Both the position numbers and the translations under genes were made by a program. Below the pieces are notes generated by a model. The model worked only from the letters and a program-made list of their open reading frames with translations. It was not told the origin of the DNA and ran no database searches. A stretch of DNA of 64,000 nt from contig NZ_PGFQ01000004.1 of NCBI RefSeq assembly GCF_029870955.1, forward strand, positions 1-64,000, given 5' to 3'. Positions 1-64,000 of the stretch are shown in pieces. Position 1 is the stretch's first letter, and each line of letters opens with the position of its first letter. This DNA is from Sulfitobacter faviae. GTDB lineage: Bacteria > Pseudomonadota > Alphaproteobacteria > Rhodobacterales > Rhodobacteraceae.

Positions 1-729
1 CCGCAGCCGCTGGATGATGCGCTTAGCGATGCAGCGCGAAATCACCTCAGATGATCTAATCCAGAAAACCCATTGGCCCAACATTGATCTGATCGGTGCG
101 CAGCTGAAACCTCTACTGGGCGGAATTCCAAATTCCCGTTTGGCGCATGGCCGCACGCGTTGGAAGCTTTGGGATGCGCTAACCGACCGGCTAGAAGCCG
201 ATGGTGTACTGGACAACTACGATGTCATCTTCCTCGATACGCCGCCCGCGCTTGCTATCTGACGATCAATGGATTGGCCGCCGCTGACATCTTGCTGGTG
301 CCCTTGGGCGCGTCCTTCCTTGAGTTTGATTCCACAGGGCGTTTCTTTGACATGCTGCACGCGACATTCTCCTCAATCGAAGACGGGGAAAACGTCGCTG
401 CACGTGCCCTGGGCCAACCAGAGGTTAACTTCGAATGGGATGCGGTGCGCGCGGTCATCACCCGTTTTGACAGCACCCAGCAGGCCGAAATGGCGGCACT
501 CATGCAAGCCTATTTAGGGCCAACCTTGTCACCCCACCGTCAGGGTTTTACAGCACTGATCGGGCAAGCGGGCGAAAGCGTGAATGGTATCTATGAGGCC
601 GACTACCGTGATTTTAACCGTGAGACCTATGCCCGGGGCCGCGAGACCTTTGATGAAACCTATGCCGCGTTCAAAAAGCTTTTGATCGGCGCATGGGCAC
701 GGGACGTGGCAGAAGAGGGCGCGTCATGA
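1..729 (+). CDS. parA: ParA C-terminal part (contig-start copy, error-rich)
   Basis: This is the C-terminal half of the partition ATPase that is complete at 57703-59067. Four single-base differences from the other copy (near 33, 109, 160 and 252) break the frame, so only residues from about base 253 onward read cleanly to the stop at 727-729. The region includes the VIFLDTPPAL segment that follows the ATP-binding core in ParA/MinD proteins. Take the sequence from the second copy. It ends 72 bp before parB. Confidence 0.85.
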
Positions 730-801
730 ACCACCCTACCCTCCCTTTGAACTGCGTACGTCGGGCTAACCCTTTTTTCACTCTTTCTGCAGGAGGCTAC
801 C

Positions 802-1810
802 ATGGCCAAACGTAAACGCCTTGCTGTTCCGGACCCGTCCCAGATCGCAGCGCCGGAGACTAAAGCCATGGACATTCCAATTGGATATGCGCCCGATCAC
901 ATGAAGCGCCGCGCGCCGATCGCCGATGTCGCGGGGCAGGCGGCCACAACCGCCGCGTTAGAGACTGTCGCGGGCGAAATGCAGGCGGCCCGCGAAGAGG
1001 GGCGCTTGGTTCAGAAGATCCCGCTCGACGCAGTAGATGCCGCCCATATGATCCGCGACCGGATCACAATCGACCCCGAAGAAATGGCAACACTCGAAGC
1101 TTCTCTTCTGGCACGCGGGCAGCAGACCCCGATTGAGGTGGTCGAGACAACACCGGGCCGCTACGGGCTGATCTCTGGTTGGCGCCGTATTAGTGCCTTA
1201 CGCAGCCTCGCACAGCGTGGGGGGGGCCGGGCAATGTGCTGGCGCTGATCCGTAAACCGGATACCGCCTCAGATGCCTATATCGCCATGGTCGAGGAAAA
1301 CGAAATCCGTGTCGGCCTCAGCTATTTTGAACGGGCCAGTATCGTCGCTGGCTCTGTTCGTGAAGGCGTGTTTCGCAACGAAAAAGAGGCCCTGAATAGC
1401 CTTTTCGCGGCCGCTTCTCGTGCCAAACGGTCTAAGATTAAAAGCTTCCTCCCGGTGGTCGAAACCCTCGGCGCTATGTCCGTCACCCTTCAGCACTGAC
1501 TGAACGCCTCGGCCTCGCGGTATCGACCCGTTTGCAGGCAGAGCCGGAGTGGGGGAAGCGTCTCTATGACAGGCTTCGTAAAGCAGATCCGGCCACGCCG
1601 GAGGATGAAGCAGCCTTGATACAAAAGGCTCTGGAGGGCGGTTCATATTCTAAGAAGGTGGGGCAGGGGGCAGCAAAGCCTGCACCCACTATCCCGGCAT
1701 CGCCAATTACCGTAAGCCGCAGCAAAGGTACGCTGCGCTTATCTGGTCCAGCTGTAACAGATGATTTGATGGATGCAATTGAGGCGTTGGTCCGGGATTG
1801 GAAGGCATAG
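802..1810 (+). CDS. parB: ParB partition protein (first copy, frame broken twice)
   Basis: ParB/Spo0J-family centromere-binding protein. The start ATG at 802 follows aggaggct, a strong ribosome-binding site. An N-terminal linker (residues 1-70) leads into the ParB nuclease-like domain with LISGWRRISALRSLA (about residues 125-140) and a helix-turn-helix region. Two errors break this copy: the ggggaggggcc of copy 2 reads ggggggggcc near 1222, and one c is lost near 1474. However, its C-terminal end, from EPEWGKRLYDRL to RDWKA, is correct here, while copy 2 loses a g at that point. Combining the copies gives an intact protein of about 336 residues. It is cotranscribed with parA. Confidence 0.88.
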
Positions 1811-1842
1811 TCTCAGGTGTCGCCAGAAAATGGCATACCCAA

Positions 1843-1862
1843 ATGTTTCGCACGCGAAACAT
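1843..1862. promoter_or_regulatory. parS-like palindrome
   Basis: The sequence ATGTTTCGCACGCGAAACAT is a 20-bp inverted repeat (9-bp arms around AC), 33 bp after the parB stop. It resembles the ParB binding consensus TGTTTCACGTGAAACA, with the same GTTTC/GAAAC outer arms but a different centre. Position and symmetry make it the best centromere candidate on the plasmid. Binding by this ParB is an inference. The second reading is at 60182-60201. Confidence 0.7.
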
Positions 1863-2169
1863 AATTTTACAAGGTACTGTTATATATAAAGAAAATAAAT
1901 CTTTCTTAGGAAGGGATGGTAAATTCTAGTGTTATCCTTCGGGATATTCACACAGGTTCTGCACGAACTCGCCACTTAGTACCGATAGTGTGGTGTCACT
2001 AGCGTGGTAATGAAATCGAACGGCGTTTACTGGATACTGGCGTTCGAGATTATTCTGGTGAATGCGCGTTAAGCAGGACAATGCGCCGTCTTTCGGGCCG
2101 CACTCTACGGTGTGTTGGGCACAAACCTAACGCAGAACCATAGTCTGAGACCATCGTTGGTATTGAAGC
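1863..2169. other. Intergenic region after parB
   Basis: About 300 bp without a convincing gene. It starts A+T-rich (tatatataaagaaaataaat, 1883-1902) next to the parS-like site and becomes mixed towards the IS110 relic. Short reading frames here have no recognisable family features. Confidence 0.5.
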
Positions 2170-2571
2170 TAGTGGCCAGATGTGCCCCCACCTGTGCGCT
2201 TGGAAGAGTGCCAAGCACGTCACCGTCTGGCCTTGCTTGGCCTCAGGCAACAAAACTTCCGGAGAGAATTTGCTATCTTCGCGGAGACGACGGTCCTCCA
2301 GTCGTGCAGCCGATCTGTTTCGTCTGGTTGTCGTGACGATTGACAAAAAGCGACACGGCCTTGGGTGCCTTTTACCGGCGGCTGGGAACGCGCATAGGCA
2401 AGCGAAAGGCAGTGACGGCCACGGCGCGCAAGATCGCAATCTACGACTCCATCCGCTATAGCATCACCTATCAGGATAAGGACGCCGCAGCTTTTGATGA
2501 TCGACATCGGCAACGCGTCTCTGAGACCTCCAGCAGCGTCTCAAACAATGGGCTATGCAAAACCACTGTTG
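2170..2571 (+). pseudogene. IS110-family transposase, C-terminal relic
   Basis: Fragments in shifting frames give a typical IS110-family (Transposase_20) C-terminus: SAKHVTVW and SGNKTSGENLLSSR (about 2205-2285), then DTALGAFYRRLGTRIGKRKAVTATARKIA (about 2346-2432; adjacent pieces) and a tail LKQWAMQNHC ending near 2573. Frameshifts near 2345, 2440 and 2528 and the missing N-terminal DEDD domain show it is dead. A conserved hairpin follows directly. The same C-terminal tail and hairpin recur at 9540-9645. Confidence 0.75.
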
Positions 2572-2577
2572 AGACCT

Positions 2578-2639
2578 GAGACCCGGTTATGGCCACCCGC
2601 TGCGCAATTTGAGGGCTGCGCAGACGGCCATAACGTCTC
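2578..2639 (+). repeat. Conserved IS110-end hairpin, locus 1
   Basis: A long imperfect stem directly follows the IS110 C-terminus. GAGAC (2578-2582) pairs with GTCTC (2635-2639), TTATGGCC (2587-2594) with GGCCATAA (2626-2633), and CTGCGC (2600-2605) with GCGCAG (2618-2623), around a TTGAGG loop. The homologous hairpin at 9586-9645 keeps the pairing despite base changes in both arms. It may be an IS110/IS1111 right-end structured RNA segment or a DNA hairpin. Confidence 0.75.
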
Positions 2640-2741
2640 CACGGCACTTCTTTCCGACTGAACTGGCCCCCATTTCGACCGGACACCTCGGACTGACCAA
2701 GGAGGCTTAAGGATAGCCTTAAGCACATGCTTATGTCTGCG

Positions 2742-3164
2742 ATGGAAATCATTACTGATGGTGGGCGCCGTCGACGCTGGTCTGCGGCTGAAAAGCTGCG
2801 GATCGTTGAAGAGACCCTCTACGACGGGGATAGTGTTTCGGCCGTTGCTCGTCGTAATGGCGTGGCGCCCAATCTGTTGTATCGTTGGCGTAGATTGATG
2901 CTTGAGGGAGGGAGTGTCGCTGTGACAGGAGATGAAAGCGTGACCAGCAATAAGGCTGTTCGAGAGATGGAAGCCCGCGTTCGGGAGCTTGAGCGTCAGC
3001 TGGGACGCAAAACGCTGGAAGTGGAGATCTTGAAGGAAGCGCTCGACAAGTCCCGCTCAAAAAAACCGACCTTGCTTGCGCGTGCCTGCGGCACCTCAAA
3101 CCGGGCGGTTCCCGATGAAGGCGGTGGCACAGACGTTAGGCGTATCCCGTTCGAACCTACATGA
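2742..3164 (+). CDS. IS3-family transposase OrfA (IS2-like)
   Basis: A small DNA-binding protein of the IS2 type. The N-terminus MEIITDGGRRRRWSAAEKLR leads a helix-turn-helix (VSAVARRNGVAPNLLYRWRR, residues about 33-52), followed by a leucine-zipper-like coiled coil (REMEARVRELERQLGRKTLE) used for OrfA-OrfB assembly. The start at 2742 matches the family better than the upstream ATG at 2727. OrfB lies in another frame and overlaps the 3' end, as expected for frameshift production of OrfAB. Confidence 0.85.
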   Translation: MEIITDGGRRRRWSAAEKLRIVEETLYDGDSVSAVARRNGVAPNLLYRWRRLMLEGGSVAVTGDESVTSNKAVREMEARVRELERQLGRKTLEVEILKEALDKSRSKKPTLLARACGTSNRAVPDEGGGTDVRRIPFEPT

Positions 3165-3941
3165 ACGGCAGAGGGGAAGCACGGAGCCGCGTCGGAGCTA
3201 TTATAAAGCTCAGGACGCGGCGCTCTTGCCACGTATCGAGTGTTTGGTGGCGGAACGCCCAACCTATGGCTACCGTCGGATCTGTGCAGTGCTGAACCTG
3301 GAACTCAAGGCAGAAGGCCTTGCCCCGGCAAATCATAAACGCGTCTATCGCAGGCCAATCACCTGCTGCTGGAGCGATCCGGCTTCGACCGGCCCGAACG
3401 CGCCCACGATGGCAAGGTCATCATGATGCGGTCGAACTTGCGCTGGTGCTCTGACGGGCTGGAGTTCACCTGCTGGAATGGCGATGTTATCCGCGCGGCG
3501 TTCTTGCTCGATGCTCATGATCGCGAGGTCATCGCTTGGCGGGCTGTCGCCAATGCCGGGATTAGCGGCTCGGACGTGCGTGACATGCTTCTGGAGGCCG
3601 TCGAAAAACGCTTCGGCAGCTATTACGCCCCAGAGGTTGTTGAGGTCTTATCCGACAATGGAAGCGCTTACACAGCAAAGGAAACCCGCATCTTCGCTCG
3701 CCAGATCGGCCTGAAGTCATGCTTCACCCCAGTCGCCAGCCCGCAATCTAACGGCATGTCCGAAGCCTTCGTAAAGACGCTCAAACGCGATTACGTACGC
3801 GTCAATCCACTACCCAATGCCGAAACCGTTTTGAATTTGATAGGAGAATGGATCGAGGACTATAACGACAACCACCTAGACAGCGGCCTAAGATGGCGAT
3901 CGCCTCGAGAGTTCATCAAGGCTAAAACCGAAACCGCTTAG
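3115..3941 (+). pseudogene. IS3-family transposase OrfB (IS2-like), frameshifted
   Basis: DDE integrase-type transposase. The N-terminal part MKAVAQTLGVSRSNLHERQ to NHKRVYR reads to about 3350, then the frame changes and continues as ANHLLLERSGFDRPERAHDG up to the stop at 3939-3941. Catalytic residues are visible: D in VLSDNGSAY and E in GMSEAFVKTLKRDY. A few bases between VYR and ANHLLL are missing compared with family members. The break is identical in both readings of the locus (61690), so it may be real and the element immobile on its own. Confidence 0.75.
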
Positions 3942-3973
3942 GTGTCCGGTGAAACGGGGGCCGGTCCACCGAC

Positions 3974-4334
3974 ATGCTATGAGACCGAGTTCACCAGTCA
4001 AGCGATCTTAAAATGGGCCGACGAGAACAAGGTGCTTTGGCACTACATCGATCCGGGTAAGCCTCGGCAAAACGCTTTCGTTGAAAGCCTCAACGGCAGG
4101 CTTAGGGATGAGCTTCTGAACGAGGAAATCTTCGATAGTGTGGAGGACGCACGGAGCAAGCTTGCCCTCCGGCGTTATGATTACAACACGGTCAGACCGC
4201 ACTCGTCCCTGGACAACCAGACACCGCAGCAAGCGCGCCGAGCGTTTGAGCAATCTGAGGGCTCCACGCCCGGCGCACTTGCGCCAGACGGAGAAGCCGA
4301 ATACCGAAATCCAACCTGTAGACTCTCGTTATGA
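3974..4334 (+). pseudogene. IS3-family OrfB C-terminal relic, locus 1
   Basis: This is the last third of an IS3-family DDE transposase of a different group from the neighbouring IS2-like element. It reads [37 protein letters not shown] (with the catalytic E) and [12 protein letters not shown]. There is no start or upstream D,D region. It was joined to the IS110 hairpin before the IS2-like element landed between them. A close relative is fused to the same hairpin at 9665-9928. Confidence 0.85.
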
Positions 4335-4743
4335 ACGATGATCCGGCGGAGGGCAGGTCTAAAAAAGGTAACAGGGCAGGGGTTGGGCGGATTCTGAGAC
4401 CTAGATCAGGGAACTCAATAGGGAGTAAGTCAGACCTACACGCGTCAAACTTTGCATCACTTGCATTGTTTTAACAGTGCTGTGCAGCGCTTGAACTGAT
4501 AGTTGGGCTAGGTTAGGCAGCGAAGAGCTCTTAACGTTACTTGATGCACGGCGTATCAAACATTCGCACGGAGTAAATTGGTGATGAAGAAAATATATGG
4601 GCACCCGTGGGAGCTTTTGCGTCGGACGCAACATCTCACGAAAACTGGAACAGTACTTAGACAACCGAATTCAATCCAAGATATCTTTCCGAGAAACAGA
4701 AATACAATTATAAGCTACTTTTTTGCCAACTAAAGGGATCGGT
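4335..4743. other. Intergenic, upstream of the glycan block
   Basis: No gene is supported in these 409 bp. The first 70 bp look like IS3 flank. The remainder is A+T-rich and probably carries the promoter for the 4744-8960 block. The last bases, aaagggatcggt, supply the ribosome-binding site for the ATG at 4744. Confidence 0.5.
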
Positions 4744-5900
4744 ATGTCACCTAATAGAAAAACTGGTCACGTTTGGTTGTTTTCAGAAAGTTGCACAGCT
4801 GAATTCTCCCAAGAACTAGCCGGAATATTTCCTAAAATCAAAAAGTTGAATGAAGGGACAGCTTCCAGTGAAGCTCATGTTTTTCAGAATCAAAAAGGAA
4901 TTATCCTTGTTGGTCGCGGCCTCGTTGATACACTTGTAACTACAATAGCGCAACGCTCTGATCCACTTGAAAAACTTGAAGAGTGGAAGTTAGAGACGGC
5001 GAACATCCTAGCAGTATATCGACGTAGCCGAAGAAAAGCCTCTATGTTTTTGATGGAGGAAATTATAACTGATCCTAACCGTGCCATTCGAGAAGTTTCT
5101 CGTAAAACCGGGTACAATGTACGATATCCAACTACATTAACTAATGGGCAAAGTATAGAGCGAAGCGCATTGCACTGGTTGCTCGCCGAGGCTTTAGCTA
5201 CAAGAGACGTTGAGGCGCAAAAGCTTAGCGAAGAACTTGAAGCGTCATCGATACCACTCGTTGAACGTAAGAAGGAAAAGCTTGATACGGCACTTGCTGC
5301 GTTGAAGTGCTGCGCTCAACTACAATACGACGCCGACGTAAAAGAACAGCAAAGTGTAGAACTTGAAATTCTAGAAAAAAAAGTGTCGGATCAGCTAGAA
5401 GCCCTTATTGAAGCAGACACACAAGCAACTGAAGTCAAACTTCTTGTTGAGCAAGCTAATGCTACAAAAATAGAAATGACGCAGCTATTAGGTGAAAACC
5501 GATTTGCCGAAGCTGAGATCGAAATGCTCTTGTCTCAAATAATCTCGTTGCAACACTCGGTTGAAGAGGTATTCAATGAGCTTCAGGATGCACTACAGTA
5601 TAAAGAAATAGCCTCTGAGCGAGATAGGGAAATATTAAGCCTGAATAACCGAATAGGAGAAATCATCTCTGAACGGGATCAGGAAATAAAAAGCCTAAAT
5701 GTCCGAATCGAAGAAATCATCTTTCAGCGAGATAAAAAATACTGGACTTAAATAGTCGAATGAATAGTTTGGAATTTTCTAACGCGACTTTAGATAGGTC
5801 GGTTAAAGAGAAAAATAGGATGATTGAGGATCTCTACCAATCGTCCTCTTGGCGTATAACCGCACCACTACGGTTTATAAAAAAGTCTCTTAGTAAGTAA
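4744..5900 (+). CDS. Coiled-coil protein of polysaccharide loci (one-base frameshift)
   Basis: The ATG at 4744 follows aaaggga. Residues 1-130 are a mixed alpha/beta region without a domain I recognise (SECAEF-type start, IILVGRGLVDTLV, then a helical NRAIREVSRKTGYNVRYPTT segment). From about residue 140 on it is coiled coil, with near-repeats REILSLNNRIGEIISERDQE and KSLNVRIEEIIFQRDKK. The frame stops at 5751 because a run of six A (5734-5739) lacks one base. Restoring it gives ILDLNSRMNSLEF and a C-terminal SSSWRITAPLRFIKKSLSK ending at 5900. That SWRxTxPLR tail recurs in surface-polysaccharide proteins. Function unknown; possibly a scaffold or chain-length factor. It heads an A+T-rich operon. 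Confidence 0.75.
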
Positions 5901-9409: not shown

Positions 9410-9535
9410 GCCTGACGACATTGACGAGCGAAGGCGCTTCTTACCTGGAACAGCGATCAGAACTTCATGGTGGGCTTTTGCGATATCAATCGCCACCAAA
9501 ACAGGCTCGGCTTGTGCAATAGTGGTATCGGTCAT
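9410..9535 (-). pseudogene. IS110-family transposase N-terminal relic
   Basis: On the minus strand [20 protein letters not shown] begins at 9535 and continues [12 protein letters not shown]. This is the start of an IS110 transposase, with the first acidic residue of the RuvC-like DEDD domain in AIDIAK. Only about 40 residues remain. It points away from the IS110 C-terminal tail and hairpin at 9540-9645, so two IS110 pieces lie head to tail-inverted at this junction. Confidence 0.7.
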
Positions 9536-9585
9536 AGTCGGTCTCTATTGCAGCGTGGTTTGCTGCAGAACCACTGTAGGGGCCT

Positions 9586-9645
9586 GAGACCCGGCTATGG
9601 TCACCTGCTGCGCTATTTGAGGGATGCGCAGACAATCATAGTCTC
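9586..9645 (+). repeat. Conserved IS110-end hairpin, locus 2
   Basis: It follows an IS110 C-terminal tail (RGLLQNHC). GAGAC (9586-9590) faces GTCTC (9641-9645), CTATGGT (9595-9601) faces ATCATAG (9635-9641, sharing one base), and CTGCGC (9608-9613) pairs with GCGCAG (9626-9631). Compared with 2578-2639 the stem carries two compensatory pair changes and one G-T wobble while the loop TTTGAGGG is kept. Confidence 0.75.
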
Positions 9646-9664
9646 TCAATCAGCGCTATTCCAG

Positions 9665-9928
9665 AGGTGTTATGGGACGGAGTTCACCAGTCAGGCCATG
9701 CTGAAATGGGCGGACGAGAATGAGGTGCCGTTGCACTACATTGATCCGGGTAAGCCGCAGCAAAACGCCTTTATCGAGAGCTTCAACGGCAGCCTGCGGG
9801 ACGATCTGCTGAACGAGGAGATATTCGACACCCTAGGTGACGCACGGCGCAAGTTGGCCCTGTGGCGCTACGACTACAATGCGGTCAGGCCACACTCGTC
9901 CCTGTCCAACCAGACAAGACCAACATAA
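9665..9928 (+). pseudogene. IS3-family OrfB C-terminal relic, locus 2
   Basis: It reads [36 protein letters not shown] and [15 protein letters not shown], clearly homologous to the relic at 3974-4334. It ends abruptly after SNQT. It forms the right boundary of the A+T-rich glycan block, with the same hairpin fusion on its left as at locus 1 and the same orientation. Confidence 0.85.
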
Positions 9929-29891: not shown

Positions 29892-31382
29892 GTGGACTTG
29901 TATTTGAAGGTGCGTCACGCTCATTTCCAGGATGGATTGAGCGGGCGTCAGATTGCCCGGGATTTTGGGATCAGCCGGGACAGTGTTGCGAAGATGTTGG
30001 CCTATTCGGAACCGCCGGGATATCGGCGGACAGCGCCGATCAGGCGCCCGAAGCTGGATGCGTTCACCAGCCAGATGGACCAATGGCTTGCTGAAGACAG
30101 GAGCCGCCCTCGCAAGCAGCGTCACACCGCCAAGCGTATTTTCGAGCGGTTGCGGGACGAGTGCGGTTTTGATGGCAGCTACACCATCGTCAAGGATTAC
30201 GTTCGAGACCGGAAGCGGACCGGCAAGGAGATGTTCGTGCCGCTGAGCCATCCGCCCGGTCATGCACAGGCCGATTTTGGTGAAGCGCTTGTCGTGATCG
30301 GCGGCGTCGAGCAGAAGGCACACTTCTTTGCCCTCGATCTGCCGCACAGCGATGCATGCTACATCCGGGCCTATCCTGCGGCCAATACCGAGGCGTGGCT
30401 TGACGGCCATGTCCATGCCTTTGCGTTCTTCGGCGCGGTTCCCCAGTCGGTTCTTTATGACAATGACCGCTGCCTGGTAGCCCGGATTCTGCCGGATGGC
30501 TCCCGGCAAAGAACCCAGCGGTTCAGCGCGATGTTGTCGCATTACGTGATCCGGGACCGCTATGGCCGTCCCGGCAAGGGCAATGACAAAGGGGCCGTGG
30601 AGGGGCTGGTCGGCTACGGACGTCGCAACTTCATGGTGCCGATCCCGTCCTTTCCGGACTGGCACGCGTTCAACGCTCACCTGGAAGAGCAGTGCCGCAA
30701 GCGCCAGGGTGATGTTCTGCGTGGCCACAAGGTCAGCATCGGGGAACGGCTGAAGGCCGATCTCGCGGCGATGCGGGATTTGCCCGGCACTCCCTTTGAG
30801 GCCTGTGAGTTGCAAAGTGGCCAGGTCACATCGACATCGGTGGTGCGTTATCGCGGCAATGATTACTCGGTGCCGGTTGCCTACGGCCACCGTGCGGTCT
30901 GGATCAAGGGCTTCGTGACCCGGGTTGTCATCGGCTGCGGCGCCGAGGTGATCGCTGAGCATTCGCGCTCCTATGACACCGGCGACATGGTGTTTGATCC
31001 ACTGCATTACCTGGCGCTGATCGAACGCAAGATCATGTCCTTCGATCAGGCCGCGCCTCTGCAGGGCTGGGAGTTGCCCGAAGCGTTCAAAACCCTGCGC
31101 CGACTGCTGGAAGCCCGGCAGGGAAAGGCCGGCAAGCGCGAGTATGTGCAGGTCCTGCGCCTTCTGGAGCGCTTCGAGATTGACGTGCTGCATCTTGCCG
31201 TCAAAGATGCCCTGCGAATGGGAGCGGTCAGCTTCGATGCAATCAAGCACCTGATCTTGTGCAGGGTCGAGCAAAGGCCTCCGAGGCTGGATCTGGATGT
31301 CTATCCCTTCCTGCCCAGAACCAACATCACCACCACCTCCGCCGCATCCTACATGAGCCTGCTGGCAGGAGGTGGGGCATGA
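29892..31382 (+). CDS. istA: IS21 transposase IstA
   Basis: DDE transposase with N-terminal helix-turn-helix (GLSGRQIARDFGISRDSVAK), acidic core residues in HAQADFGEALVVIGG and SVLYDNDRCLV, and E in KGAVEGLVGYGRRNF. The GTG at 29892 (VDLYLKVRHAHFQ) matches IstA family starts better than the upstream TTG. Its stop overlaps the istB start (ATGA). Confidence 0.92.
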   Translation: MDLYLKVRHAHFQDGLSGRQIARDFGISRDSVAKMLAYSEPPGYRRTAPIRRPKLDAFTSQMDQWLAEDRSRPRKQRHTAKRIFERLRDECGFDGSYTIVKDYVRDRKRTGKEMFVPLSHPPGHAQADFGEALVVIGGVEQKAHFFALDLPHSDACYIRAYPAANTEAWLDGHVHAFAFFGAVPQSVLYDNDRCLVARILPDGSRQRTQRFSAMLSHYVIRDRYGRPGKGNDKGAVEGLVGYGRRNFMVPIPSFPDWHAFNAHLEEQCRKRQGDVLRGHKVSIGERLKADLAAMRDLPGTPFEACELQSGQVTSTSVVRYRGNDYSVPVAYGHRAVWIKGFVTRVVIGCGAEVIAEHSRSYDTGDMVFDPLHYLALIERKIMSFDQAAPLQGWELPEAFKTLRRLLEARQGKAGKREYVQVLRLLERFEIDVLHLAVKDALRMGAVSFDAIKHLILCRVEQRPPRLDLDVYPFLPRTNITTTSAASYMSLLAGGGA

Positions 31383-32143
31383 CGGATGCACCCGAACTGC
31401 TGCTGGCCCACCATCTCAAAACGCTTCGGCTGCCCACGTTCCTGCGTGAACATGACAAGCAGGCCCGTATCTGCGCCGCTGAAGGCGTAGATCACGTGCG
31501 TTACCTGGCCCGGCTGACCGAGCTGGAACTGATCGACCGGGAACGGCGCATGGTGGAACGCCGGATCAAGGCCGCAAAGTTCCCGACCATCAAAAGCCTG
31601 GACAGCTTCGACTTCAAGGCGATCCCGTCGCTCAACAAGATGATGGTGCTGGAGCTGGCGCGCTGCGAATGGATCGAACGCAAGGAGAATGTGATCGCGC
31701 TCGGTCCCTCCGGCACCGGCAAGACCCATGTCGCCCTCGGGCTGGGACTGGCTGCCTGCCAGAAAGGATTGCCTGTCGCCTTCGTGACCGCCGCAGCCCT
31801 CGTGCACGAGATGATGGAGGCCCGCGACGAAAAACGCCTCCTGCAACTCCAGCGCAAACTCGCCAAGGTCAAACTGCTGATCATCGACGAGCTGGGATTC
31901 GTCCCCTTGAGCAAAACCGGCGCCGAGCTTCTGTTCGAGCTGATCTCACAGCGCTACGAGCGAGGGTCGACCCTGATCACAAGCAACCTGCCCTTCGAGG
32001 AGTGGACCGAAACCTTCGGCACCGAACGCCTGACCGGCGCGCTGCTGGACCGGCTGACACACCACGTCAACATCCTCGAGATGAACGGCGAAAGCTACCG
32101 CCTCAATCAAAGCCGCGCCCGCCTCGCCGCCGCTAACAAATGA
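31379..32143 (+). CDS. istB: IS21 helper ATPase IstB
   Basis: AAA+ ATPase, DnaC-like, which remodels the IstA complex and selects target DNA. Walker A is GPSGTGKTHVALGLG, Walker B is LLIIDELGFVPLSK. 254 residues, intact. Starts at MTDAPELLLAHHLKTL within the istA stop. Confidence 0.93.
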   Translation: MTDAPELLLAHHLKTLRLPTFLREHDKQARICAAEGVDHVRYLARLTELELIDRERRMVERRIKAAKFPTIKSLDSFDFKAIPSLNKMMVLELARCEWIERKENVIALGPSGTGKTHVALGLGLAACQKGLPVAFVTAAALVHEMMEARDEKRLLQLQRKLAKVKLLIIDELGFVPLSKTGAELLFELISQRYERGSTLITSNLPFEEWTETFGTERLTGALLDRLTHHVNILEMNGESYRLNQSRARLAAANK

Positions 32144-32398
32144 ACCTCACAGAATTGGCCTGACGGCCAATGCGCCTTGGACCGGGCTTGCTATATGAGG
32201 GCCGCACGCTCCAAGGCGCTCGCCCCAAACTGGCCGACTTTTGCTCCGCCACAATGGCCGAATTTTACTCCGCCATTGACACAGAAATGTCACTGGGTTT
32301 GCAAAGCAGGAATGTCACTACTGGGCGCGACGGTAGCAAGGCTTTGCAGCCCGGAGACCCCACATATCGAAGGGCCGAAAAGCCTTGCGGGGATTGGC

Positions 32399-32683: not shown

Positions 32684-34036
32684 CTATTCCGCCGCCTGCG
32701 CAATCTTCTTCTTGGCTTTCGATCCTGAGGGCCTGCCAGGACGCCGCCCATTCGGTTTATAACCCATCTTCTCGGAATTTGTCCGCACCTTCGGCTTTGG
32801 CGGCGCGGCGTCCTGCATCTCCTTGATGTGTTCCAGAACTGCGCTCAGGTTTTTGTTGCTGGTGATTGCCGCATGGGTGACGCGCTGATCCATGTCGAAG
32901 ACTGTGTAGGGCAGGGAGCGGCCTTTGGAGCGCACCTCGAACCGGCCATCAACAAAGGCGTAGGTGTCCACGTATTTGCCAACCAGCCCGCGCGTGATGT
33001 CACTCTCTTCGAGCATGATCCGCTTGCGGTCGTAGGAGAACGTTAACTGCCTGCCGACATAGCGGTTCTCGCGCCAGCACAGCACATCTGCCAGCCGATC
33101 CGGTTCGACATTGAGCGCGCGATGCAGGTTGTCCGACCTGGCCGGGGCCTTGGCGAACCTGGCGTTGTGGCGGTCTTTGAAGCCTTGCAAATAGGCGTTT
33201 CCAGCTTCCATGTCTGAAATGCCCGCGATGCGCAGTTCCTTGACCAGCCGATCCTGCAACGTGCGGTTGGCGCGTTCGACACGGCCTTTGGCCTGGCTCG
33301 AATTGGCGCAGAGAATCTCGATGTTCAGCTCACTCAGCGCCCGACCAAACTGGGTGATCCGCGCACCACCCTTGGCGTCCTCTTTGGAGACACGGAACAC
33401 CGTGTGCTTGTCAGAATAGAACGCGACCGGGCGACCGTGTTTGTGCAGATAGCTTTCCAAAGCTTCAAAGTAGCTGAACGTGCTCTCTGTCTTCACAAAC
33501 CGCAGTTCCATGAGCGTGCTGGTCGCGTCATCGATGAACACAAGCAGGGTGCAAGGTGGTGCGCGGTCTTCAAACCAGCGATGGTCCGAGCCGTCGATCT
33601 GGATCAGCTCACCGAAGCATTCCCGGCGCAGGCGAGGTTGATGAAACTGGCGGCGCTGCTTGCGAGACAGCCAGATGCCATCTTCAACCATCCACTTGCG
33701 CACCGTCTCACGCGAGACCTTTAACCCATGATGTTCGGCCAACATCTCAGCCGCAAGCGTCGGCCCGAAGTCCGGATAATGTTCCTTGATGACGGTCAGC
33801 GCATAATCGCGTTTGGCTGAGTGGATTTGGTTGTTCGGCGCGCGCCCACGCGACTTGTGCCGGATCGCAGATGCACCGTCCTGGCGATACCGCTTCAAAA
33901 GCCGAAACACTTGCCGCCGTGTCAGGTCCAGCATGTTCGCCGCGTTGTCGACGCTCAGCCGCGCATCATCGACCTGCGCCAAAACCTCAACCCGGTTCAA
34001 CTCGCGCTCGCTCATCGTCACCCATCCCATGTCCAC
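32684..34036 (-). CDS. ISNCY-family transposase
   Basis: 450 residues. N-terminal helix-turn-helix (NMLDLTRRQVFRLLKRYRQDG), integrase-like DDE core with LIQIDGSDHRWFEDR (D), FIDDATSTLM, FYSDKHTVFRV (D) and SSQAKGRVERANRTLQDRL (E), and a basic C-terminal tail (RRPGRPSGSKAKKK). This layout is that of IS1202/ISNCY transposases. The start may be MSERELNRVEVL rather than the first ATG. Confidence 0.85.
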   Translation of the reverse strand: MDMGWVTMSERELNRVEVLAQVDDARLSVDNAANMLDLTRRQVFRLLKRYRQDGASAIRHKSRGRAPNNQIHSAKRDYALTVIKEHYPDFGPTLAAEMLAEHHGLKVSRETVRKWMVEDGIWLSRKQRRQFHQPRLRRECFGELIQIDGSDHRWFEDRAPPCTLLVFIDDATSTLMELRFVKTESTFSYFEALESYLHKHGRPVAFYSDKHTVFRVSKEDAKGGARITQFGRALSELNIEILCANSSQAKGRVERANRTLQDRLVKELRIAGISDMEAGNAYLQGFKDRHNARFAKAPARSDNLHRALNVEPDRLADVLCWRENRYVGRQLTFSYDRKRIMLEESDITRGLVGKYVDTYAFVDGRFEVRSKGRSLPYTVFDMDQRVTHAAITSNKNLSAVLEHIKEMQDAAPPKPKVRTNSEKMGYKPNGRRPGRPSGSKAKKKIAQAAE

Positions 34037-57702: not shown

Positions 57703-59067
57703 ATGGATCACCCCCTTATTTCTCCATCACGCCTGAAAAGGCGCGGGCAGAACTGGAAGCGCCGGTAGGCACGCAAAAGTTCCTGACCATTTCCGAGGCC
57801 TGCACGCGGGGCATGGGAGACCTTGCCACAAGAGGTCTGGGCGAAGAAGGCAAGAAATCCCTCCGTCTGTTCTCCACTTGGGAAATCACCAAATACCTCA
57901 TTCCCGTAGCACAGGCCCATTTCCGCCGCGTTCTGAAAGCAAACCCCGAACTGCCCCAAGGCCGATCTGAGACCGAAGGCGGCGCCAAATGGTTTACCCT
58001 CGACGAAGTGCTGCGCCTGCGGGCCTTCTTTGCCGCCGAAGGGTCCAAGGCCAAAGAATACCTCCCTACCGACCCAAAGGGCGACCCGCCAAAATGGTGG
58101 CCGTGGCCAACTTCAAAGGCGGTGTTGGCAAAACCTCGACCGCGGCCCATCTGGCGATGTCGGCAGCGCTGGATGGCTACCGTGTGCTGGTGATCGATCT
58201 GGACAGCCAAGGTTCAATGACCAGTATTTTCGGGGCAAGGTTGAAGATGAATGGCAAACCGTCTTTCCGCTTCTCGCGCGCCACTATGCCGACCATCTAC
58301 AGGGGGAGAACCGAGCCCGTGTCTCCCGCGGCGAAACCCCGCAGCCGCTGGATGATGCGCTTAGCGATGCACGCGAAATCACCTCAGATGATCTAATCCA
58401 GAAAACCCATTGGCCCAACATTGATCTGATCGGTGCGCAGCTGAACCTCTACTGGGCGGAATTCCAAATTCCCGTTTGGCGCATGGCCGCACGCGGTTGG
58501 AAGCTTTGGGATGCGCTAACCGACCGGCTAGAAGCCGATGGTGTACTGGACAACTACGATGTCATCTTCCTCGATACGCCGCCCGCGCTTGGCTATCTGA
58601 CGATCAATGGATTGGCCGCCGCTGACATCTTGCTGGTGCCCTTGGGCGCGTCCTTCCTTGAGTTTGATTCCACAGGGCGTTTCTTTGACATGCTGCACGC
58701 GACATTCTCCTCAATCGAAGACGGGGAAAACGTCGCTGCACGTGCCCTGGGCCAACCAGAGGTTAACTTCGAATGGGATGCGGTGCGCGCGGTCATCACC
58801 CGTTTTGACAGCACCCAGCAGGCCGAAATGGCGGCACTCATGCAAGCCTATTTAGGGCCAACCTTGTCACCCCACCGTCAGGGTTTTACAGCACTGATCG
58901 GGCAAGCGGGCGAAAGCGTGAATGGTATCTATGAGGCCGACTACCGTGATTTTAACCGTGAGACCTATGCCCGGGGCCGCGAGACCTTTGATGAAACCTA
59001 TGCCGCGTTCAAAAAGCTTTTGATCGGCGCATGGGCACGGGACGTGGCAGAAGAGGGCGCGTCATGA
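57703..59067 (+). CDS. parA: ParA partition ATPase with N-terminal DNA-binding domain (three frameshifts)
   Basis: Partition ATPase, type Ia-like. With single bases restored in runs at 57710-57714 (C), 58091-58094 (A) and 58232-58235 (G), it reads from MDHPPYFSITPEKARAELEA through an N-terminal helix-turn-helix region (FLTISEACTRGMGDLA, residues about 25-125), then Walker A VAVANFKGGVGKTSTAAHLA, DLDSQGSMTS and VIFLDTPPALGY. About 455 residues. The extra N-terminal domain usually autoregulates parAB. 72 bp before parB. Confidence 0.9.
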
Positions 59068-59139
59068 ACCACCCTACCCTCCCTTTGAACTGCGTACGTC
59101 GGGCTAACCCTTTTTTCACTCTTTCTGCAGGAGGCTACC

Positions 59140-60149
59140 ATGGCCAAACGTAAACGCCTTGCTGTTCCGGACCCGTCCCAGATCGCAGCGCCGGAGACTA
59201 AAGCCATGGACATTCCAATTGGATATGCGCCCGATCACATGAAGCGCCGCGCGCCGATCGCCGATGTCGCGGGGCAGGCGGCCACAACCGCCGCGTTAGA
59301 GACTGTCGCGGGCGAAATGCAGGCGGCCCGCGAAGAGGGGCGCTTGGTTCAGAAGATCCCGCTCGACGCAGTAGATGCCGCCCATATGATCCGCGACCGG
59401 ATCACAATCGACCCCGAAGAAATGGCAACACTCGAAGCTTCTCTTCTGGCACGCGGGCAGCAGACCCCGATTGAGGTGGTCGAGACAACACCGGGCCGCT
59501 ACGGGCTGATCTCTGGTTGGCGCCGTATTAGTGCCTTACGCAGCCTCGCACAGCGTGGGGAGGGGCCGGGCAATGTGCTGGCGCTGATCCGTAAACCGGA
59601 TACCGCCTCAGATGCCTATATCGCCATGGTCGAGGAAAACGAAATCCGTGTCGGCCTCAGCTATTTTGAACGGGCCAGTATCGTCGCTGGCTCTGTTCGT
59701 GAAGGCGTGTTTCGCAACGAAAAAGAGGCCCTGAATAGCCTTTTCGCGGCCGCTTCTCGTGCCAAACGGTCTAAGATTAAAAGCTTCCTCCCGGTGGTCG
59801 AAACCCTCGGCGCCTATGTCCGTCACCCTTCAGCACTGACTGAACGCCTCGGCCTCGCGGTATCGACCCGTTTGCAGGCAGAGCCGGAGTGGGGAAGCGT
59901 CTCTATGACAGGCTTCGTAAAGCAGATCCGGCCACGCCGGAGGATGAAGCAGCCTTGATACAAAAGGCTCTGGAGGGCGGTTCATATTCTAAGAAGGTGG
60001 GGCAGGGGGCAGCAAAGCCTGCACCCACTATCCCGGCATCGCCAATTACCGTAAGCCGCAGCAAAGGTACGCTGCGCTTATCTGGTCCAGCTGTAACAGA
60101 TGATTTGATGGATGCAATTGAGGCGTTGGTCCGGGATTGGAAGGCATAG
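59140..60149 (+). CDS. parB: ParB partition protein (second copy, one frameshift)
   Basis: Better reading of parB: MAKRKRLAVPDPSQIAAPET to LQAEPEWG is continuous here, including AYIAMVEENEIRVGLSYFERASIV. One G is missing near 59890, shifting the end into a false tail that stops at 59958; the true end (KRLYDRL to RDWKA, stop 60147-60149) is in the first copy. Binds the parS-like palindrome 33 bp downstream. Confidence 0.92.
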
Positions 60150-60181
60150 TCTCAGGTGTCGCCAGAAAATGGCATACCCAA

Positions 60182-60201
60182 ATGTTTCGCACGCGAAACA
60201 T
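60182..60201. promoter_or_regulatory. parS-like palindrome (second reading)
   Basis: Same 20-bp inverted repeat as 1843-1862, identical in this reading. Confidence 0.7.
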
Positions 60202-60508
60202 AATTTTACAAGGTACTGTTATATATAAAGAAAATAAATCTTTCTTAGGAAGGGATGGTAAATTCTAGTGTTATCCTTCGGGATATTCACACAGGTTCTG
60301 CACGAACTCGCCACTTAGTACCGATAGTGTGGTGTCACTAGCGTGGTAATGAAATCGAACGGCGTTTACTGGATACTGGCGTTCGAGATTATTCTGGTGA
60401 ATGCGCGTTAAGCAGGACAATGCGCCGTCTTTCGGGCCGCACTCTACGGTGTGTTGGGCACAAACCTAACGCAGAACCATAGTCTGAGACCATCGTTGGT
60501 ATTGAAGC

Positions 60509-60910
60509 TAGTGGCCAGATGTGCCCCCACCTGTGCGCTTGGAAGAGTGCCAAGCACGTCACCGTCTGGCCTTGCTTGGCCTCAGGCAACAAAACTTCCG
60601 GAGAGAATTTGCTATCTTCGCGGAGACGACGGTCCTCCAGTCGTGCAGCCGATCTGTTTCGTCTGGTTGTCGTGACGATTGACAAAAAGCGACACGGCCT
60701 TGGGTGCCTTTTACCGGCGGCTGGGAACGCGCATAGGCAAGCGAAAGGCAGTGACGGCCACGGCGCGCAAGATCGCAATCTACGACTCCATCCGCTATAG
60801 CATCACCTATCAGGATAAGGACGCCGCAGCTTTTGATGATCGACATCGGCAACGCGTCTCTGAGACCTCCAGCAGCGTCTCAAACAATGGGCTATGCAAA
60901 ACCACTGTTG
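60509..60910 (+). pseudogene. IS110 C-terminal relic (second reading)
   Basis: Identical to 2170-2571, including the same frame breaks, so those breaks are real decay rather than contig-end errors. Confidence 0.75.
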
Positions 60911-60916
60911 AGACCT

Positions 60917-60978
60917 GAGACCCGGTTATGGCCACCCGCTGCGCAATTTGAGGGCTGCGCAGACGGCCATAACGTCTC
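60917..60978 (+). repeat. IS110-end hairpin (second reading of locus 1)
   Basis: Same stem as 2578-2639 with no differences. Confidence 0.75.
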
Positions 60979-60997
60979 CACGGCACTTCTTTCCGAC

Positions 60998-62307
60998 TGA
61001 ACTGGCCCCCATTTCGACCGGACACCTCGGACTGACCAAGGAGGCTTAAGGATAGCCTTAAGCACATGCTTATGTCTGCGATGGAAATCATTACTGATGG
61101 TGGGCGCCGTCGACGCTGGTCTGCGGCTGAAAAGCTGCGGATCGTTGAAGAGACCCTCTACGACGGGGATAGTGTTTCGGCCGTTGCTCGTCGTAATGGC
61201 GTGGCGCCCAATCTGTTGTATCGTTGGCGTAGATTGATGCTTGAGGGAGGGAGTGTCGCTGTGACAGGAGATGAAAGCGTGACCAGCAATAAGGCTGTTC
61301 GAGAGATGGAAGCCCGCGTTCGGGAGCTTGAGCGTCAGCTGGGACGCAAAACGCTGGAAGTGGAGATCTTGAAGGAAGCGCTCGACAAGTCCCGCTCAAA
61401 AAAACCGACCTTGCTTGCGCGTGCCTGCGGCACCTCAAACCGGGCGGTTCCCGATGAAGGCGGTGGCACAGACGTTAGGCGTATCCCGTTCGAACCTACA
61501 TGAACGGCAGAGGGGAAGCACGGAGCCGCGTCGGAGCTATTATAAAGCTCAGGACGCGGCGCTCTTGCCACGTATCGAGTGTTTGGTGGCGGAACGCCCA
61601 ACCTATGGCTACCGTCGGATCTGTGCAGTGCTGAACCTGGAACTCAAGGCAGAAGGCCTTGCCCCGGCAAATCATAAACGCGTCTATCGCAGGCCAATCA
61701 CCTGCTGCTGGAGCGATCCGGCTTCGACCGGCCCGAACGCGCCCACGATGGCAAGGTCATCATGATGCGGTCGAACTTGCGCTGGTGCTCTGACGGGCTG
61801 GAGTTCACCTGCTGGAATGGCGATGTTATCCGCGCGGCGTTCTTGCTCGATGCTCATGATCGCGAGGTCATCGCTTGGCGGGCTGTCGCCAATGCCGGGA
61901 TTAGCGGCTCGGACGTGCGTGACATGCTTCTGGAGGCCGTCGAAAAACGCTTCGGCAGCTATTACGCCCCAGAGGTTGTTGAGGTCTTATCCGACAATGG
62001 AAGCGCTTACACAGCAAAGGAAACCCGCATCTTCGCTCGCCAGATCGGCCTGAAGTCATGCTTCACCCCAGTCGCCAGCCCGCAATCTAACGGCATGTCC
62101 GAAGCCTTCGTAAAGACGCTCAAACGCGATTACGTACGCGTCAATCCACTACCCAATGCCGAAACCGTTTTGAATTTGATAGGAGAATGGATCGAGGACT
62201 ATAACGACAACCACCTAGACAGCGGCCTAAGATGGCGATCGCCTCGAGAGTTCATCAAGGCTAAAACCGAAACCGCTTAGGTGTCCGGTGAAACGGGGGC
62301 CGGTCCA
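60998..62307 (+). mobile_element. IS2-like IS3 element (second reading)
   Basis: Same as 2659-3968, with CCGAC direct repeats at 60993-60997 and 62308-62312. OrfA is at 61081-61503 and the frameshifted OrfB at 61454-62280, with the same break. Confidence 0.88.
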
Positions 62308-62312
62308 CCGAC

Positions 62313-62673
62313 ATGCTATGAGACCGAGTTCACCAGTCAAGCGATCTTAAAATGGGCCGACGAGAACAAGGTGCTTTGGCACTACATCGATCCGGGTAAG
62401 CCTCGGCAAAACGCTTTCGTTGAAAGCCTCAACGGCAGGCTTAGGGATGAGCTTCTGAACGAGGAAATCTTCGATAGTGTGGAGGACGCACGGAGCAAGC
62501 TTGCCCTCCGGCGTTATGATTACAACACGGTCAGACCGCACTCGTCCCTGGACAACCAGACACCGCAGCAAGCGCGCCGAGCGTTTGAGCAATCTGAGGG
62601 CTCCACGCCCGGCGCACTTGCGCCAGACGGAGAAGCCGAATACCGAAATCCAACCTGTAGACTCTCGTTATGA
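62313..62673 (+). pseudogene. IS3 OrfB C-terminal relic (second reading)
   Basis: Same as 3974-4334. Confidence 0.85.
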
Positions 62674-63082
62674 ACGATGATCCGGCGGAGGGCAGGTCTA
62701 AAAAAGGTAACAGGGCAGGGGTTGGGCGGATTCTGAGACCTAGATCAGGGAACTCAATAGGGAGTAAGTCAGACCTACACGCGTCAAACTTTGCATCACT
62801 TGCATTGTTTTAACAGTGCTGTGCAGCGCTTGAACTGATAGTTGGGCTAGGTTAGGCAGCGAAGAGCTCTTAACGTTACTTGATGCACGGCGTATCAAAC
62901 ATTCGCACGGAGTAAATTGGTGATGAAGAAAATATATGGGCACCCGTGGGAGCTTTTGCGTCGGACGCAACATCTCACGAAAACTGGAACAGTACTTAGA
63001 CAACCGAATTCAATCCAAGATATCTTTCCGAGAAACAGAAATACAATTATAAGCTACTTTTTTGCCAACTAAAGGGATCGGT

Positions 63083-64000
63083 ATGTCACCTAATAGAAAA
63101 ACTGGTCACGTTTGGTTGTTTTCAGAAAGTTGCACAGCTGAATTCTCCCAAGAACTAGCCGGAATATTTCCTAAAATCAAAAAGTTGAATGAAGGGACAG
63201 CTTCCAGTGAAGCTCATGTTTTTCAGAATCAAAAAGGAATTATCCTTGTTGGTCGCGGCCTCGTTGATACACTTGTAACTACAATAGCGCAACGCTCTGA
63301 TCCACTTGAAAAACTTGAAGAGTGGAAGTTAGAGACGGCGAACATCCTAGCAGTATATCGACGTAGCCGAAGAAAAGCCTCTATGTTTTTGATGGAGGAA
63401 ATTATAACTGATCCTAACCGTGCCATTCGAGAAGTTTCTCGTAAAACCGGGTACAATGTACGATATCCAACTACATTAACTAATGGGCAAAGTATAGAGC
63501 GAAGCGCATTGCACTGGTTGCTCGCCGAGGCTTTAGCTACAAGAGACGTTGAGGCGCAAAAGCTTAGCGAAGAACTTGAAGCGTCATCGATACCACTCGT
63601 TGAACGTAAGAAGGAAAAGCTTGATACGGCACTTGCTGCGTTGAAGTGCTGCGCTCAACTACAATACGACGCCGACGTAAAAGAACAGCAAAGTGTAGAA
63701 CTTGAAATTCTAGAAAAAAAAGTGTCGGATCAGCTAGAAGCCCTTATTGAAGCAGACACACAAGCAACTGAAGTCAAACTTCTTGTTGAGCAAGCTAATG
63801 CTACAAAAATAGAAATGACGCAGCTATTAGGTGAAAACCGATTTGCCGAAGCTGAGATCGAAATGCTCTTGTCTCAAATAATCTCGTTGCAACACTCGGT
63901 TGAAGAGGTATTCAATGAGCTTCAGGATGCACTACAGTATAAAGAAATAGCCTCTGAGCGAGATAGGGAAATATTAAGCCTGAATAACCGAATAGGAGAA
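63083..64000 (+). CDS. Coiled-coil protein, truncated by the window end (second reading)
   Basis: Same gene as 4744-5900, cut at the window edge in the coiled-coil region. The reading so far is identical. Confidence 0.75.
   Translation, partial: MSPNRKTGHVWLFSESCTAEFSQELAGIFPKIKKLNEGTASSEAHVFQNQKGIILVGRGLVDTLVTTIAQRSDPLEKLEEWKLETANILAVYRRSRRKASMFLMEEIITDPNRAIREVSRKTGYNVRYPTTLTNGQSIERSALHWLLAEALATRDVEAQKLSEELEASSIPLVERKKEKLDTALAALKCCAQLQYDADVKEQQSVELEILEKKVSDQLEALIEADTQATEVKLLVEQANATKIEMTQLLGENRFAEAEIEMLLSQIISLQHSVEEVFNELQDALQYKEIASERDREILSLNNRIGE

What the first reader, a model, noticed from the sequence alone, without database searches (positions are those of the whole stretch)
2578..2639. 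Hairpin at IS110 ends conserved by compensatory base changes
The hairpins at 2578-2639 and 9586-9645 both directly follow an IS110 C-terminus. Aligning the stems, T-A becomes C-G and C-G becomes T-A on matching arms, and one G-C becomes G-T, while the CTGCGC/GCGCAG inner stem and TTGAGG loop are fixed. Paired change in two copies points to selection on structure. IS1111-group IS110 elements encode their guide (bridge/seek) RNA in the downstream end, so this may be part of such an RNA, or a palindromic insertion target.
Basis: partly seen in the sequence, partly recalled or inferred. Interest (0 to 1): 0.75.

Follow-up and report, generated by a model that had tools for sequence, protein, structure and literature searches.

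The report
Shared hairpin at insertion-sequence ends
The two hairpins are the left-end leader hairpin of an IS110-type jumping gene, and hairpins with the same unusual core recur near the ends of several unrelated jumping-gene families in related bacteria, which points to a common but still unproven role.

Summary
They fold on the window's minus strand. In 78 of 80 relatives the hairpin lies in the left end of an IS110 element, between terminus and transposase start, on the transposase strand. A 16-pair stem is 96.5% paired over 70 distinct left ends, 7 pairs change on both sides, and G·U cells outnumber A·C 76 to 5. It is not the guide RNA: the right end holds a conserved stretch with candidate target and donor guides. 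It is not the target, which is the Asp-Asn-Gly codons of DDE transposase genes, a target already published for ISEc21 (PMC11187229). Unexpectedly, the hairpin core (GNA/GNA internal loop, ~9-nt loop) recurs near ends of IS3, IS21, IS256 and ISNCY elements of Alphaproteobacteria, with different but complementary stems, on the strand reading into the element. Rfam shows no match at the hairpins tested. The window carries it in IS110 (twice), IS3, ISNCY and, weakly, IS21. Function is inferred: an RNA leader or a single-stranded DNA signal.

The parts
2583..2637 (-). hairpin, copy 1 (left-end leader hairpin of an IS110 element)
   Evidence: model R2 69.6 bits, E 2.4e-17; R3 E 1.3e-11
2551..2650 (-). 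left-end fragment of the IS110 element that holds copy 1; transposase gene not present
   Evidence: 92% identical to a relative's left end over 100 bases
2151..2538 (+). remnant of an IS110 transposase gene, probably of another branch, against which copy 1 lies
   Evidence: 73.8% DNA identity to an annotated IS110 family transposase gene on a Roseivivax plasmid; no tblastn match to this clade's transposases better than E 0.33
9591..9645 (-). hairpin, copy 2
   Evidence: model R2 53.4 bits, E 8.9e-13; R3 E 4.9e-8
9536..9671 (-). left end of the IS110 element of copy 2, from the junction with the IS3 gene to just before the transposase ATG
   Evidence: read from the sequence against the junctions of relatives
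9428..9535 (-). IS110 transposase N-terminal remnant
   Evidence: tblastn residues 4-35, 66% identity, E 3.6e-8
9665..9925 (+). IS3 family transposase fragment, the interrupted target gene
   Evidence: NCBIfam transpos_IS3 E 2.9e-24, below its curated cut-off for a whole protein; Pfam rve_3
4230..4281 (-). hairpin of the same kind at the 3' end of an IS3 transposase remnant, opposite strand to the gene
   Evidence: R3 39.7 bits, E 1.1e-6; IS3 residues 200-326 matched at E 2.7e-61
32334..32390 (+). hairpin of the same kind near the 3' end of an ISNCY transposase gene (32684-34036, minus), opposite strand
   Evidence: R3 36.3 bits, E 6.3e-6; ISNCY tblastn E 6.4e-142; ORF
32172..32219 (-). weak candidate hairpin just after an IS21 istB gene (31259-32143, plus), opposite strand
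   Evidence: R3 21.1 bits, E 0.02; IstB tblastn E 2.1e-44
60922..60976 (-). second copy of hairpin 1 in the repeated contig end
   Evidence: repeat

Best explanation
Identity (close to certain): the hairpins are left-end leader hairpins of an IS110-family element that inserts into the Asp-Asn-Gly codons of DDE transposase genes. They belong to a wider kind of hairpin found near one end of IS110, IS3, IS21, IS256 and ISNCY elements of Alphaproteobacteria: a foot (often [G/T]AG ... CGG), a stem of almost any sequence, a symmetric GNA/GNA internal loop, two pairs and a loop of about 9 nt, on the strand that reads from the element's end inward. Mechanism (inferred, this is what the confidence refers to): it works as a folded single strand, most likely RNA. 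In IS110 and nearly all IS256 cases seen it is part of the transposase mRNA leader; in IS110 a second hairpin is predicted to hide the ribosome-binding site, and the two would hold transposase output down when transcripts run in from outside. The conserved core may be read by a common host factor.
For: Position and strand in 78 of 80 relatives. Stem 96.5% of 1119 cells paired, 113 cells changed on both sides against 33.7 +/- 7.7 in shuffles. On the transposase strand 76 G.U against 5 A.C cells; by rough parsimony 35 changes to G.U against 4 to A.C, which double-stranded DNA would not distinguish. Second hairpin: mean unpaired probability of the Shine-Dalgarno 0.18 against 0.39 with shuffled upstream leader, lower in 22 of 23 leaders (prediction only). 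Cross-family recurrence: 36 of 53 examined R2 places beside an IS3, IS256, IS21 or ISNCY gene with one place and strand per family; 13 of 17 examined R3 places in 15 genomes outside the home family and 7 of 9 further loci beside one of the five kinds; cross-family pairs 96.8% of 506 cells, 135 both-sided cells against 41.8 +/- 4.6.
Against: In IS3, IS21 and ISNCY the folding strand is antisense at the gene's 3' end, which a leader role does not explain. One IS256-like case has the opposite arrangement (L251). G.U tolerance also fits single-stranded DNA. The number of further pair types does not exceed shuffles in the IS110 set (335 of 500 as high). No RNA data were seen. No U-tract follows the stem, so it is not an ordinary terminator. 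Copies of one IS in one genome are counted more than once.
Confidence: 0.5

Rival explanations
1. Single-stranded DNA signal: the hairpin forms on one strand while the element is excised or copied as a circle and recruits the transposase or a host replication or repair protein.
For: The relation to the element's end is constant across families while the relation to the gene is not. Each arm holds the 7-mer GCGNAGC in the IS110 set, known as a very stable DNA mini-hairpin (recalled; PMC4686876 abstract start speaks of a unique mini-hairpin DNA). Several of the carrier families are known for circular intermediates (recalled).
Against: In IS110 and 11 of 12 IS256 cases it sits exactly in the transposase leader. 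No strand-specific DNA data.
Confidence: 0.32
2. Look-alike hairpins without a shared role: GC-rich genomes make such hairpins often and the cross-family likeness is convergence or model bias.
For: The bare pattern CGCGNAGC N8-11 GCGNAGCG is not enriched over its reversed control in the 149 genomes (by eye, not summed). R3 was built from hits that R2 chose, and A6 is fitted to the structure.
Against: In 489,902 bases only about 3 or 4 of 177 R2 matches at E up to 5 lack an IS explanation, about what chance predicts. Multi-copy hits fall at a fixed place and strand per family. Sliding partners drops pairing from 96.8% to 28-39%.
Confidence: 0.1
3. Part of the IS110 guide RNA (bridge or seek RNA).
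For: In most IS110-group elements the guide RNA is in the left end (PMC11208160 passages; PMC11187229 section 6).
Against: Target and donor complementary segments and a conserved ~250-nt non-coding stretch are in the right end. I saw no left-end segment that follows target or donor; the stem GG[T/C]TATGG varies in the opposite sense to the left-end start.
Confidence: 0.03
4. Palindromic insertion target or REP-type element.
For: IS110 elements often target palindromes such as REP (PMC11187229 passages); the foot [G/T]AG resembles the REP tetranucleotide (recalled).
Against: The hairpin is inside the element and the target is coding DNA. Own genome: 12 R3 matches at E up to 0.1 and no Y1 transposase.
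Confidence: 0.02

Closest known systems
IS110-family guide RNA (bridge RNA of IS621, seekRNA of ISEc11 and ISEc21)
   Same: Structured RNA region encoded in a non-coding end of an IS110-type element; a candidate of this kind is present in the right end of this clade.
   Different: The hairpin asked about is in the other (left) end and shows no target or donor match.
ISEc21 (PMC11187229, section 12 read)
   Same: IS110-family element that targets codons around the second Asp of DDE in IS3 transposase genes.
   Different: ISEc21 has its non-coding region upstream; this clade has the candidate guides downstream and a conserved leader hairpin upstream.
Leaders of IS200 and IS10 (recalled, no paper in hand; one search found none)
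   Same: Hairpins in the transposase leader that limit translation of transcripts from outside.
   Different: Those are single-family cases; here the same core recurs in several families and on antisense 3' ends.
REP elements with their Y1 transposase (recalled)
   Same: Short hairpin with a short foot sequence.
   Different: Few copies, beside insertion-sequence genes where a neighbour was identified, and no Y1 transposase in the genome.

Membership tests
IS110 family (the host element) | DEDD N-terminal domain and Transposase_20 C-terminal domain | tested here: met
   Pfam PF01548 and PF02371 above cut-off in L019 and L023; NCBIfam transpos_IS110 8.8e-60 and 3e-65
IS110 family (the host element) | insertion at a specific sequence | tested here: met
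   left flank C[A/G]T and right flank T[G/A]TC in nearly all of 64 and 66-67 junctions
IS1111 group | subterminal inverted repeats of 7-17 bp | tested here: inconclusive
   8 bp GTCGGGAA/TTCCCGAC in L019-L021, about 4 bp in L022 and L023
IS1111 group | transposase of 330-350 aa | tested here: not met
   410-419 aa; range quoted from PMC11187229 section 6
IS1111 group | long non-coding region with the guide RNA downstream of the transposase gene | tested here: met
   about 250 nt conserved right end with candidate guides; RNA itself not observed
IS110 guide RNA (for the hairpin) | segments complementary to target and donor | tested here: not met
   found in the right end only; the left end was judged by reading, not by a formal scan
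REP element | many copies and a Y1 (RAYT) transposase in the genome | tested here: not met
   12 R3 matches at E up to 0.1; 0 Y1_Tnp
Intrinsic terminator | run of T after the hairpin | tested here: not met
   the sequence after the stem reads CGGGTCTCAGG and relatives
Known RNA families (Rfam 15) | match to a covariance model | tested here: not met
   none in the window at gathering scores; none at the hairpins of 7 loci at E up to 1
IS200-type repressive leader | a hairpin hides the transposase Shine-Dalgarno | tested here: met
   predicted only, for the second hairpin: 22 of 23 leaders; hairpin 1 itself does not cover it
IS200-type repressive leader | lower transposase translation shown by experiment | not testable with these tools
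   no expression data

The most novel reading that the evidence does not exclude
One structural module, a hairpin with a GNA/GNA internal loop between GC pairs, is shared by at least five unrelated insertion-sequence families of Alphaproteobacteria and reads inward from one end of the element. It was gained or kept across families because one host factor, or one step common to these elements, recognises it as folded RNA or single-stranded DNA. It would be a general control or replication signal of insertion sequences that family-by-family study would miss.
Probability: 0.4. Interest if true: 0.8.

Novelty: new variant of a known kind. Interest (0 to 1): 0.6.

Why it matters
If the cross-family hairpin is real, unrelated insertion sequences share a cis signal and perhaps a host partner, which makes a common control of their copy number testable. 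It also corrects a trap: a covarying hairpin at an IS110 end need not be its guide RNA. The IS110 clade adds a natural candidate guide (GAUAAUG) that would pair with both codon variants of Asp-Asn by wobble, a parallel to ISEc21.

Tried and rejected
Guide RNA in the left end: rejected. Target palindrome and REP: rejected. Anti-Shine-Dalgarno pairing by the hairpin loop (CCCUCA): dropped, the loop letters are not conserved. Bare core pattern in 149 genomes: uninformative, the reversed control looks as frequent or more so (not summed). A core pattern of class X (L140, L142, L187, L190; no transposase found beside them with my references) in 289 genomes of the class: 0 matches; L243 and L244, beside ISNCY genes, share its AGACCTCA[A/T]ATATCGCAG. 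Model R1 was built with a structure one column off and replaced by R2. Alignments A4 and A5 were made and not used for counts. Alternative inner pairing of the hairpin (B) is poorer and was not used.

Rows dropped before counts: 8 of 80 loci without the right-end anchor and 3 without a right end, two more (L043, L108) because a wrong end motif was picked (both still stand in the table), leaving 67 sequences, 60 distinct; 6 of these 67 gave no donor comparison (4 without the motif, 2 without a left end); of 24 picked leaders one had no Shine-Dalgarno by my pattern; in L112 the wrong place was scored, and it is the one not lower than its control. Only transposases of five IS families were used as references, so another family would show as 'none'.

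Papers: PMC11187229 outline, passages and sections 6, 9, 12, 13; PMC11208160 passages; PMC4686876 search listing with start of abstract. IS200, IS10, REP and circular-intermediate remarks are recalled. Searches for a published cross-family IS hairpin: 0 papers; 39 papers hold at least 3 of the 4 terms, 15 listed, none about it by title; 0 papers.

Full report
Observation. Both hairpins are in the sequence. Copy 1 folds better than all 200 shuffles on either strand; copy 2 is weaker. A covariance model from relatives finds both on the minus strand at E 2.4e-17 and 8.9e-13. Their setting is not as described: copy 2 stands upstream of an IS110 N-terminus on the minus strand, and copy 1 abuts a C-terminal remnant that is probably of another IS110 branch.

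The element. The region around copy 1 matches 10 of 98 genomes searched, the own genome included, all of one genus. Five fetched copies with an open transposase frame (L019-L023) show a ~1.65-kb IS110 element inserted in IS3-type transposase genes, with the hairpin between the left terminus and the transposase start. A scan of genome contigs with the transposase alignment confirmed 315 relatives; the best 80 were kept. 78 of these 80 have the hairpin in the left end; in the other two (L064, L109) the match begins inside the transposase.

Fold. On 70 distinct left ends a 16-pair stem is formed in 96.5% of 1119 cells. 113 cells in 7 pairs changed on both sides (shuffles 33.7 +/- 7.7, 0 of 500 as high; for the number of such pairs 8 of 500 are as high); sliding the partner leaves 24-48% paired. 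The number of further pair types does not exceed shuffles (335 of 500 as high). On the transposase strand there are 76 G.U and 5 A.C cells. By parsimony on one protein tree 35 changes led to G.U and 4 to A.C, and 15 both-sided changes kept a standard pair (rough). Double-stranded DNA would treat G.U and A.C alike, so this strand folds by itself, as RNA or single-stranded DNA.

Not the guide RNA, not the target. The right end holds a conserved non-coding stretch. It contains GAUAAUG in 54 of 60 distinct sequences (GA[U/C]AAUG in 56), complementary with wobble to the target C[A/G]TT[A/G]TC, the reverse complement of Asp-Asn-Gly codons. In a second segment, UG[C/U]UAUGG, the variable base fits the left-end start (AGCA or AACA) in 60 of 61 elements that could be compared; the two forms largely follow clades, so these are not 60 independent events. 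A third segment, AGGACG, repeats the right-end letters. In the junction table CC[A/G]T precedes the element in 62 or more of 64 and T[G/A]TC follows it in most of 66-67. An IS110 element with these target codons is already published: ISEc21 (PMC11187229, section 12). In the leader, a second hairpin is predicted to hide the Shine-Dalgarno: it is less free than with shuffled upstream sequence in 22 of 23 leaders.

A hairpin shared by other families. The IS110 model R2 also gave weaker, often multi-copy matches that are not IS110; 61 of 292 genomes of the order and 5 of 299 in a phylum-wide draw, own genome included, had a match of any kind at E up to 0.001. I fetched and examined 53 such places, some of them copies of one IS in one genome. 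36 have an adjacent transposase gene in one relation per family: IS3 (19, hairpin at the gene's 3' end, opposite strand), IS256 (11, upstream, same strand), IS21 istB (3, 3' end, opposite), ISNCY (3, 3' end, opposite). Of the other 17, two look like IS110 left ends inside an IS3 gene, 12 had no hit to my references and 3 had a hit that is not at the expected place. Family names come from NCBIfam. The stems differ between families yet stay complementary, while the core stays: GNA on the 5' side in 32 of 32 and on the 3' side in 29 of 32 sequences of A6, with a foot [G/T]AG in 24 of 32 and CGG in 24 of 32. On A6, 96.8% of 506 cells pair, with 135 both-sided cells against 41.8 +/- 4.6 in shuffles; A6 is fitted to the structure. 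Read on this strand A6 has 27 G.T and 0 A.C cells, though the model itself favours G.U.

A model R3 from A6 matched 17 of 289 genomes of the class and 14 of 249 in a phylum-wide draw; every matched genome belongs to the class. Outside the home family it listed 22 places in 15 genomes, none used to build R3; I examined 17 (the other 5 are further copies in two genomes): 13 lie beside one of the five transposase kinds, 4 do not, 3 of these 4 at contig ends. In all, one search examined 21 places, 16 with such a neighbour; L265 (own genome, E 0.015) lies in an unrelated reading frame and is probably false. Of 9 further loci from the phylum draw 7 have such a neighbour. One IS256-like case (L251) has the gene on the other strand, and three ISNCY cases have the gene's end about 480-490 nt away rather than 54. 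In the window R3 adds the IS3 remnant at 4230-4281, the ISNCY hairpin at 32334-32390 and, weakly, one after istB at 32172-32219.

Chance? In 489,902 bases of relatives' loci 177 R2 matches have E up to 5. Left-end hairpins and their other strand make up most; 15 lie about 320-390 nt before the left-end hairpin, where the flanking IS3 gene should end (inferred from place), one (L112) resembles the IS3 hairpin by sequence, and about three (L083, L095, L109) are unexplained, against five expected by chance. So the E-values look honest. The bare core without stems is not enriched, so the claim rests on core, stem and place together.

How it may work. In the families above the folding strand runs from the nearest element end inward. 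In IS110 and 11 of 12 IS256 cases this is the transposase leader, so I favour an RNA that dampens transposase expression from transcripts entering the element, as in IS200 and IS10 (recalled). In IS3, IS21 and ISNCY it is antisense at the 3' end, which a leader role does not explain; a single-stranded DNA signal would. I put these at 0.5 and 0.32.

Novelty. No Rfam match at gathering scores in the window or at the hairpins of seven loci at E up to 1. Three searches of the held library found no cross-family hairpin of this kind; that library lacks most subscription papers. The target type and the two-ended non-coding layout of some IS110 elements are known; the cross-family hairpin is the part that may be new.

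Noticed in passing
window 1-5661 and 58339-64000: The two stretches are the same sequence (99.9% over 5665 aligned positions, no mismatch, 7 gaps), offset about 58.3 kb in a 71-kb contig: probably an over-assembled circular plasmid.
   Followed up: partly
L019-L023 and L033-L112, right end of the IS110 element: Conserved ~250-nt stretch with GAUAAUG and donor-like segments: a candidate guide RNA whose target is the Asp-Asn-Gly codons of DDE transposase genes.
   Followed up: partly
L140, L142, L187, L190: Hairpins with core GTAGACCTCAAAT[A/T]TCGCAGCG and fully different complementary outer stems, with no transposase found beside them.
   Followed up: partly
L056 and L045, left end: The leader's Shine-Dalgarno region GAGGAGACC is replaced by GAGGGTGCG[T/C]AGCA.
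   Followed up: no
L233, L234, L235: A further IS3 type with core CGCGGAGCTTTG[C/T][G/A]G[G/A]TTGCGCAGCG-like hairpins and arms GCAACGGGG.../...CCCCGTTGC at the gene's 3' end.
   Followed up: partly
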